Below are positions 15,065 to 21,680 of a stretch of DNA of 64,000 nt, in pieces. The stretch is taken from contig NZ_CP045488.1 in assembly GCF_009392895.1 (NCBI RefSeq), positions 744,001 through 808,000 on the forward strand. The letters run 5' to 3'. The DNA comes from Natronorubrum aibiense (GTDB lineage Archaea > Halobacteriota > Halobacteria > Halobacteriales > Natrialbaceae). The notes under the pieces are model-generated. The model saw only the letters and a list, made by a program, of their open reading frames with translations, did not search any database and was not told where the DNA came from. A program made the position numbers and the translations under genes. Positions within the stretch are counted from its first letter, which is position 1, and every line of letters begins with the position of its first letter.

Positions 15065-15996
15065 CATGGAATGTCCTATAACGGCATGAAAAACAGGAGC
15101 GCATGCGTATGACGGCACGCTCCCTGATCCGCGATTGGTACCGTGACTCTGGAATCGGACCGGAACCCACCGACAGGGGCGCTCGTGTGCTTACTCGAGT
15201 GGCGGGATAGCAGATTGTCTCTGGTCAGACAGTCTATATCCGATGCTGAACCACCGTTACGCAGGGCTGTCACCGACTCGCCGACGCTGTACCACTCGTT
15301 GAACGGTAGTCTCTTCCGCACCGACGGTGTGGGAATTCGATGCCCGCGAATTGGAGTGGAGCGATCCCGCAGACATAGAGGACTTAGCTTCTATTGGCGT
15401 ACCATCGTACCGGCCGAGTTCGAACGAGTACGGCAGCGTCGCTCGTCTGAGGACCTCGAGAGACAGGCCCTCGTGGCCAATGATCCTAATTGCACCCAGT
15501 GCCGGCGCGCGAATGCTGGCAAGATTTGAGGACAGAGACGAACTTGACGACGGTATCGAGGAGTGGTCTCCCGGACAATTCTACCTTACACAAGAGGTGA
15601 ACACACTTCTTGATCTATGAATTATATAAAATTTGATATAATTTTGTCGCGTCTCTGTCGGAATCTTCTCCCAGTGGAGACCAGATTGCAATACTGCCTG
15701 GTATAGGCGTTCATATCGTCAAAATATCTATTTTTGTCATTTGTCCACGCAGATCGGGTATCCACGAAAATTGCATGGACAGGAGTGTCCATGCAAAATC
15801 GCATGACTGGAACGCTGTCCACGCAAAAATATGGTCCGAAACCAACTAGTATACACTGGGTTCCATCCGCAAAACGATGCAAGGACAGGCAATCTGGATA
15901 GGATATCTAATATCGGCACTTATATCAGTCTTCTTATACACTTTTCTATAGATTGAATGAGGACAACAGATCAAATTCATACACTTTCATTTATTG
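15065..15996. other. AT-rich accessory spacer
   Basis: A 0.9-kb stretch without a gene I can defend. A 98-codon plus-strand frame from GTG 15327 to 15620 has no recognisable similarity. From 15620 base composition becomes strongly AT-rich. A perfect 11-bp inverted repeat TTGCATGGACA/TGTCCATGCAA at 15771-15796 is followed by a related GTCCACGCAAAAA at 15817-15829 and preceded by TTTGTCCACGCAG at 15739-15751. Confidence 0.4.
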
Positions 15997-16170
15997 GGCT
16001 CTGGTGAATTGCTAGATGACAGCGACCTTCGGAGAGTACTCACATTTCCCGAGTCGTCACGCTGGAACAATGTTGACTCCAACCTCGAAGATTCTGGCAG
16101 TGACGAAGCGGATAGACACTCTCACAACACCCTTGAAACACGAGAGCCTGACACTGTTTGACTATCTGTC
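15997..16170 (+). repeat. diverged copy of the MITE-like element
   Basis: Starts GGCTCTGGTGAATTGCTAG and matches, in the same order and with many substitutions, the 180-bp element at 21501-21680 on the minus strand; conserved stretches include GTCACGCTGGAAC and CAGTGACGAAGCGG. The far terminal repeat is not recognisable, so this copy is truncated or decayed. It lies just upstream of the interrupted reader gene. Confidence 0.6.
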
Positions 16171-16248
16171 AAAGCAGTTTGATGTTTGTTCTTTTGATCG
16201 GTTGTTTAACAGGATTTATGATAAACTGCTGTCTCGTGTTACAAAAGA

Positions 16249-17310
16249 ATGACAAACGAGCGCCGAATGTCTACCGTTCGGTTCTACGGAGGGATTGAGG
16301 AGCGCTTGGATATTTTCACGGATCTACTCTCGCACCTCGTACAATCTACCGAGAACGACGAAGGAGTACCACGACACGAGGTCGTTGACTGGATAATCGC
16401 CAACACAAATGCAAAGAATCCTGATTCGGTTGCGGATCGCTTGAATTTCATCGAGGAACTCGGCCTCATCGAGGACCAAGACGGCACATACTCCTGTACA
16501 CGAACCGGTCGCTGCTATCTCAGGGAGCGAGATCCGATCGTCCTGTACAACGCGCTTCGCACGAGCATCAAGGGCTTCGATACAATCCTCCGTGCGTTAG
16601 CTCTCGAGCCCAGAACCGACGAGGACCTCATGGAACTGCTCGTTGGCGAGTTCGAAGAGTGTCAGATGGAGACGCCAGGCGTGGTGACACGCCATCGCAA
16701 GTGGTTGCAGATGATCGGCTACGTGGAGCGGACAGACGATCACAACCATCTCACTGAAGCCGGTGAGGCAGTTGCCGAACAACTCCATGGGCTCTCTGCT
16801 GTAGAGCTAGAGCCCGGCTCAACCTACCACCGTCAGACCCTCCACACAGAATACGGCGGCAGCATCCAGGGCGGAATCGCGCCCTCGAGAGACGAACCCG
16901 TCGTCTTTCTCTTCACTGGTGGCACCGGAGAAGCACACGGCTATTAGGACGAGATCCGCCCGGACGGGACCGTGATCTACACCGGAGAAGGGCAGGTCGG
17001 CGACATGGAAATGAAACGCGGGAACCGCGCAATTCGAAGCCACCTCGAGCACGGACGGGAACTGCACTTCTTCACGATGGAAACCGAGGGTGTGCAGTAT
17101 GTTGGCCAGTTCATGTATGCCGGCCACTTTTTCGAGGAAATCCCCGATTCGGAGGGCAACGCTCGCGAAGGGATCCGATTCAAACTCGCACCGATCACAA
17201 CCGATCAGACCAGCCATCAACCAACGGCCACAGACGACCGACCCTCGAGAAACTCCGATCTTCGCCAGTTCACCGACCCGACAGTCTATCGGGTGCCCGT
17301 GAAGTCATAG
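16249..17310 (+). pseudogene. wHTH + SRA/SBD-like modified-DNA reader, broken by one TAG
   Basis: One frame runs from ATG 16249 to the stop at 17308-17310 with a single in-frame TAG at 16945-16947 (context HGY-stop-DEIRPDG). The N-terminal 185 residues contain two winged-helix segments like those in haloarchaeal restriction proteins. The rest (YHRQTLHTEYGGSIQGGI, YTGEGQVGDMEM, GNRAIRSHLEHG, YVGQF) matches the SRA/sulfur-binding-like domain found before the HNH nuclease in ScoMcrA-type modification-dependent enzymes. No HNH motif follows. Either a recent nonsense mutant or two polypeptides; readthrough is unlikely in a haloarchaeon. A defence or regulatory role is inferred. Confidence 0.75.
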
Positions 17311-21500: not shown

Positions 21501-21680
21501 GGCTCTGGTGAATCGACATACGGCGTCGGGTTCCAGTGGTTCGATGGAGTCGTGAGAGCGTCCGCCCGCTTCGTCACTGCTGGAATCCTTGACGTCACAG
21601 GCAATTTCGTTCCAGCGTGACGCCTTGAGCGAGGTGAGTTCTCACCGGAGGTCGCTGCCGGCTAGCGATTCACCAGATCC
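21501..21680 (-). mobile_element. 180-bp MITE-like element with 15-bp terminal inverted repeats
   Basis: The ends GGCTCTGGTGAATCG (21501-21515) and CGATTCACCAGATCC (21666-21680) are inverted repeats matching at 14 of 15 positions. A diverged copy lies at 15997-16170 in the opposite orientation. The interior contains no full gene but one frame reads SRWNEIACDVKDSSSDEAGG, also recognisable in the other copy, so it may derive from the end of a longer transposon gene. No clear target-site duplication. Confidence 0.6.

What the first reader, a model, noticed from the sequence alone, without database searches (positions are those of the whole stretch)
16249..17310. Modified-DNA reader gene split by a single TAG
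The frame is open on both sides of one TAG at 16945-16947, and the protein similarity runs straight through it. It has wHTH plus an SRA/sulfur-binding-like domain but no HNH nuclease, so the intact form would be a reader without its cutter: a regulator, an antirestriction factor or half of a two-gene defence system.
Basis: partly seen in the sequence, partly recalled or inferred. Interest (0 to 1): 0.6.

Follow-up and report, generated by a model that had tools for sequence, protein, structure and literature searches.

The report
Truncated relic of McrB-type restriction gene
This is a broken, cut-short copy of the DNA-reading front end of a virus-defence (McrBC-type restriction) gene whose intact version, followed by its probable nuclease gene, sits on another replicon of the same salt-loving archaeon; it is an ordinary decaying gene remnant, though the intact gene's domain combination is unusual.

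Summary
The frame is as described: open on both sides of one TAG (16945-16947), with similarity running through it. But the TAG is the smaller of two lesions. Window 16206-17304 is a 1,099-bp fragment, 92.5% identical to the 5' end of an intact 1,208-codon gene on contig C2 of the same genome. Homology stops at 17304, so the last 856 residues and the neighbouring gene are missing. The intact protein is two winged helices, a ScoMcrA-like SRA domain, a middle region resembling an archaeal McrB reader, and an McrB GTPase. In C2 and six relatives it is followed at once by a conserved gene with a PD-(D/E)xK motif, the probable McrC-type cutter. No sulfur-binding signature was found. Differences sit mostly at third positions (57 of 78), so decay is recent. 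Verdict: recent pseudogene fragment, low interest; the intact gene's domain combination is mildly novel.

The parts
16206..17304 (+). Duplicate fragment of the 5' end of a wHTH-SRA-McrB gene: 43 bp of leader plus 352 codons. Against N. sulfidifaciens the leader homology runs a little further, to about 16183 (by eye).
   Evidence: blastn 92.5% identity over 1,099 bp to C2; edges compared
16249..16947 (+). Remaining ORF, 232 aa, ending at the internal TAG inside the SRA domain
16294..16527 (+). First winged-helix domain (residues about 16-93)
   Evidence: AlphaFold2 model, mean pLDDT 87; HTH_45 0.00063, below Pfam cut-off
16534..16785 (+). Second winged-helix domain (residues about 96-179)
   Evidence: PF25213 6.2e-10, above cut-off; AlphaFold2 model
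16816..17196 (+). SRA-like domain (residues about 190-316), interrupted by the TAG
   Evidence: profile match to ScoMcrA SRA, E 1.7e-5; Foldseek to SUVH5 SRA, E 1.1e-5, TMt 0.67-0.72
16945..16947 (+). Nonsense codon TAG (codon 233); the intact copies have Gln at this position
17304..17310 (+). Truncation point: homology ends at 17304; chance TAG at 17308-17310 closes the frame
15997..16160 (+). Dispersed repeat just upstream of the fragment; an inverted copy lies at 21517-21680 and further copies elsewhere in the genome

Best explanation
The feature is a recently made, non-functional 5' fragment of an mcrB-type gene. The intact gene (about 1,208-1,222 aa) works, most likely, as the sensor-motor subunit of a two-gene type IV restriction system. 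Its N-terminal two winged helices and SRA domain, and probably a second PUA-like domain in the middle, inspect DNA for modification. The C-terminal McrB GTPase assembles and translocates or signals. The adjoining PD-(D/E)xK protein (McrC-like) cuts. Shown by sequence: fragment identity, truncation, TAG, the McrB domain, the SRA domain, and conservation of the gene pair. Inferred: that the downstream protein is the cutter, that the trigger is a DNA modification (which one is unknown), and that the fragment is silent or useless.
For: 92.5% nucleotide identity over 1,099 bp to the intact C2 gene. Intact 1,208-1,222 aa genes in Natronorubrum sulfidifaciens, Natribaculum, Halobiforma, Natronosalvus, Natronoglomus and others. 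Downstream gene immediately following or overlapping, 70-95% identical to the own-genome copy, with invariant D353...E373-x-K375. C-terminal domain matches solved E. coli McrB, E 7e-12, and NCBIfam McrB, E 1.1e-13, below its equivalog cut-off, with NxxD motif MNxYDK. SRA matched by profile and fold. Middle region matches the Thermococcus gammatolerans McrB reader domain, weakly. No trace of the rest of mcrB or of the partner gene in the window. TAG is an ordinary stop here.
Against: Fragment-branch changes (18 silent, 9 replacement, 1 stop) show no relaxed constraint compared with the intact copies, so loss of function rests on structure (truncation plus nonsense), not on a decay signature. 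The downstream protein has no Pfam, NCBIfam, PADLOC or PDB match to McrC; its role rests on its position and a motif read by eye. The middle-region model is poor (pLDDT 54).
Confidence: 0.85

Rival explanations
1. The fragment is retained as a functional short reader (232 aa, two winged helices plus an SRA stub) that competes with, or regulates, the intact McrBC-like system on C2.
For: No relaxed constraint on the fragment branch. The leader and start codon are preserved. Long identical runs shared with the C2 copy (136 bp, permutation P 0.0006) hint at sequence exchange.
Against: The stop falls inside the SRA fold, between conserved residues Y232 and D234. No truncated copy was found at a matching place in a relative; the flanks are not conserved in nine congeners. 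Six silent and two replacement changes after the TAG are no different in kind from 12 and 7 before it, as expected if the stop is recent.
Confidence: 0.06
2. The TAG is a sequencing error, so the fragment has a 353-residue open frame.
For: A single base accounts for it, and everything else in the frame is intact.
Against: The assembly is nearly complete (99.98% completeness, 4 contigs); even without the TAG the gene is still cut to a third and ends in foreign sequence.
Confidence: 0.05
3. TAG is read through or recoded (for example pyrrolysine).
For: Open frame on both sides only.
Against: PylS not above its cut-off in the genome; TAG ends 12 of 43 long open stretches in the window; intact copies have Gln there.
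Confidence: 0.01

Closest known systems
McrBC type IV restriction (E. coli McrB 6ut6/6hz4; T. gammatolerans McrB reader domain 6p0f/6p0g; EVE-McrB fusions, PMC7641849)
   Same: The intact gene has an McrB-type AAA+ GTPase with NxxD motif at its C-terminus, N-terminal reader domains and an adjoining putative nuclease gene
ScoMcrA / TagI-like SRA-HNH modification-dependent endonucleases (5zmm, 5zmn; PMC6224610)
   Same: SRA domain homologous by profile and fold; distant haloarchaeal homologues of the same N-terminal module are fused to HNH
   Different: No HNH, and no sulfur-binding-domain profile or motif; the module is joined to McrB instead
HHPV4I and other PUA-wH-HNH enzymes of haloarchaea (PMC10101028, PMC11037411)
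   Same: Combination of a winged helix and an SRA-like domain as DNA reader in haloarchaea; NTD-wH-NTPase fusions are mentioned there
   Different: Order is SRA-wH-HNH there, wH-wH-SRA-McrB here; direct homology not tested
DndFGH (DptFGH) phosphorothioate-dependent restriction genes
   Same: Lie directly upstream of the intact gene on C2
   Different: Not seen beside the other six complete copies in the 19.5-kb stretches examined, so neighbourhood only, not part of the unit

Membership tests
McrBC (for the intact C2 gene pair) | McrB-type AAA+ GTPase domain | tested here: met
   PDB E. coli McrB E 7e-12; AAA_5 1.1e-16; NF008457 1.1e-13, below its equivalog cut-off
McrBC (for the intact C2 gene pair) | NxxD signature of McrB GTPases | tested here: met
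   MNxYDK conserved in eight copies
McrBC (for the intact C2 gene pair) | McrC partner with DUF2357 domain | tested here: inconclusive
   Conserved adjoining gene, but no Pfam, NCBIfam, PADLOC or PDB match
McrBC (for the intact C2 gene pair) | PD-(D/E)xK nuclease motif in the partner | tested here: met
   Invariant PD(353)...E(373)VK(375) by inspection of the alignment; no profile support
McrBC (for the intact C2 gene pair) | Modification-dependent restriction of DNA | not testable with these tools
   Needs an experiment
McrBC (for the window fragment) | Presence of the GTPase domain and partner gene | tested here: not met
   No match to residues 353-1208 or to the partner in the window
SRA domain | Sequence and fold similarity to SRA domains | tested here: met
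   Pfam SAD_SRA only 0.2 for the single sequence; alignment profile to ScoMcrA 1.7e-5; Foldseek SUVH5 SRA 1.1e-5
Sulfur-binding domain (ScoMcrA SBD) | SBD profile match and sulfur-pocket motifs (around H116-R117-P118 and Y164-P165-F166-W167 of ScoMcrA) | tested here: not met
   Profile match restricted to the SRA part of ScoMcrA; motifs absent in fragment and orthologues; residues per PMC6224610. Foldseek did align SBD+SRA jointly to ScoMcrA but with TM only 0.35
PbeABCD phosphorothioate system | SF2 helicase PbeA, small PbeB, ABC-ATPase PbeC, DndE-like PbeD | tested here: not met
   Neighbours on C2 are DptF/G/H and the McrB-like pair; component definitions from PMC10853773

The most novel reading that the evidence does not exclude
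The chromosomal fragment is kept as a short DNA-reader protein, a natural dominant-negative or tuning subunit of the intact McrBC-like system on the other replicon, with occasional sequence exchange between the two copies.
Probability: 0.05. Interest if true: 0.5.

Novelty: new member of a known kind. Interest (0 to 1): 0.22.

Why it matters
For the window itself, little: it is a defence-gene relic in a lower-GC stretch. It does lead to an intact two-gene unit in haloarchaea that joins the wHTH-SRA reader known from HNH endonucleases to an McrB motor, which suggests that reader modules are exchanged between one-protein and two-protein type IV restriction enzymes. That unit could be tested directly for which DNA modification it senses.

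Tried and rejected
PbeABCD: first suspected from memory because of the Dnd-like neighbours on C2; rejected after reading PMC6459918 and PMC10853773. DndFGH as an operon partner: rejected as general, since the other complete copies lack it in the stretches examined. Pyrrolysine or recoded TAG: rejected. Remaining pieces of the gene elsewhere in the window: none. Empty-site comparison: the flanks are not contiguous in nine congeners, so no empty site could be shown. Target-site duplication around the fragment: only 6-bp chance matches. Viral origin: phage and viral-contig relatives match only the SRA part, at 32-49% identity. Fold of the middle region: poor model, only a weak McrB-reader match (E 1.3e-3); influenza HA2 hits judged spurious coiled-coil matches.

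Full report
Observation. Window 16249-17310 (+) is an open frame broken once, at TAG 16945-16947 (codon 233). Searching the window's own genome (4 contigs, 4.35 Mb) finds the same reading frame uninterrupted on contig C2 (431 kb): residues 1-353 align through the TAG at 93% identity.

The larger lesion. The C2 gene is 1,208 codons long. Nucleotide homology between window and C2 runs from 16206 to 17304 (1,099 bp, 92.5%), and then stops in mid-gene; the TAG at 17308-17310 that seems to close the frame lies in unrelated DNA. Nothing of residues 353-1208 or of the next gene is found anywhere in the window. The feature is thus a 5' fragment with a nonsense codon, not a whole gene split by one stop. 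Just upstream lies a dispersed repeat (15997-16160) with an inverted copy at 21517-21680, in a stretch of lower GC than much of the right half of the window. The flanks are not contiguous in nine congeners. How the fragment got there is not shown.

What the intact gene is. In 293 genomes of the order, the form with an open frame of about 1,215-1,225 codons occurs in the own genome and six others, with a more divergent 1,600-codon form in G010. Named copies include Natronorubrum sulfidifaciens, Natribaculum breve, Halobiforma haloterrestris, Natronosalvus hydrolyticus and Natronoglomus mannanivorans. Residues 1-320, read through the TAG with relatives aligned, model well as two winged helices plus an SRA-like barrel (mean pLDDT 87). 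Foldseek's best matches are ScoMcrA and SUVH5 SRA, and an alignment profile hits ScoMcrA over its SRA, not its SBD (SBD is residues 91-260 in PMC6224610). The sulfur-pocket motifs are absent. The C-terminal third of the intact protein matches E. coli McrB (E 7e-12) and carries the McrB NxxD motif. The middle is poorly modelled, but its best fold match, and a weak profile match, is the T. gammatolerans McrB reader domain.

The partner. In all seven complete copies examined with long flanks (C2 and six others) a 449-467 aa gene follows at once, often overlapping; six loci with named organisms or MAGs, partly the same genomes, repeat this. It has an invariant PD...ExK motif but no profile match to McrC. 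I infer that it is the McrC-type nuclease. DptF, DptG and DptH genes lie upstream on C2 only.

Relatives with a cutter in the same chain. More distant homologues (30-43% identity) fuse the same N-terminal module to an HNH domain, and shorter SRA-HNH proteins are common. So the module is shared between one-chain HNH enzymes and the McrB-type system. In the papers read I found SRA-HNH, wH-HNH, EVE-McrB, YTH-McrB and NTD-wH-NTPase proteins, but no statement of a wH-wH-SRA-McrB protein; this search of open-access text is not exhaustive.

State of the fragment. Of 78 differences from C2 in the coding part, 57 are at third positions. Assigning changes with N. sulfidifaciens as third sequence gives the fragment 18 silent, 9 replacement and 1 stop change, against 29/15 for C2 and 27/23 for N. 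sulfidifaciens. So nearly all divergence arose under constraint: the source was a functional, slightly different allele and the truncation and TAG are recent, or (less likely) the short product is still used. A 136-bp run without differences between fragment and C2 is longer than expected (permutation P 0.0006), which hints at local exchange or a mosaic source.

Conclusion. The fragment is most probably a dead, recent relic. The intact form is most probably the sensor-motor half of a two-gene type IV restriction system; its trigger is unknown. Confidence 0.85 for this as a whole, lower (about 0.7, my judgement) for the nuclease role of the partner gene.

Noticed in passing
L003 and L004 (own genome C2:90000-125000); L005 (C2:78000-89999): Defence-rich region on C2: DptF/DptG/DptH genes upstream of the intact McrB-like gene, plus ORFs that look like adenine methyltransferases, GHKL ATPases, a DUF262-like protein, large helicases and an HNH protein (by eye). 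No check was made for the phosphorothioation genes DndACDE.
   Followed up: partly
L004:6251-6950 (C2:116250-116950): Second broken reader in the same genome: an SRA-HNH gene remnant with stops and apparent frameshifts, 45% identical to residues 226-330 of the query.
   Followed up: partly
16016-16252: A 78-codon frame running from the dispersed repeat into the fragment's leader and overlapping its ATG (ATGA); probably chance.
   Followed up: no
15742-15889: Another dispersed repeat, 86% identical to C2:336986-337133.
   Followed up: no
16543-16680 and 17167-17291: Unusually long stretches without differences between the fragment and the C2 copy; possible gene conversion between replicons.
   Followed up: partly
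L071:1686-2846: The intact gene in N. sulfidifaciens lies about 3 kb from a phage-integrase-type gene, which suggests mobility.
   Followed up: no
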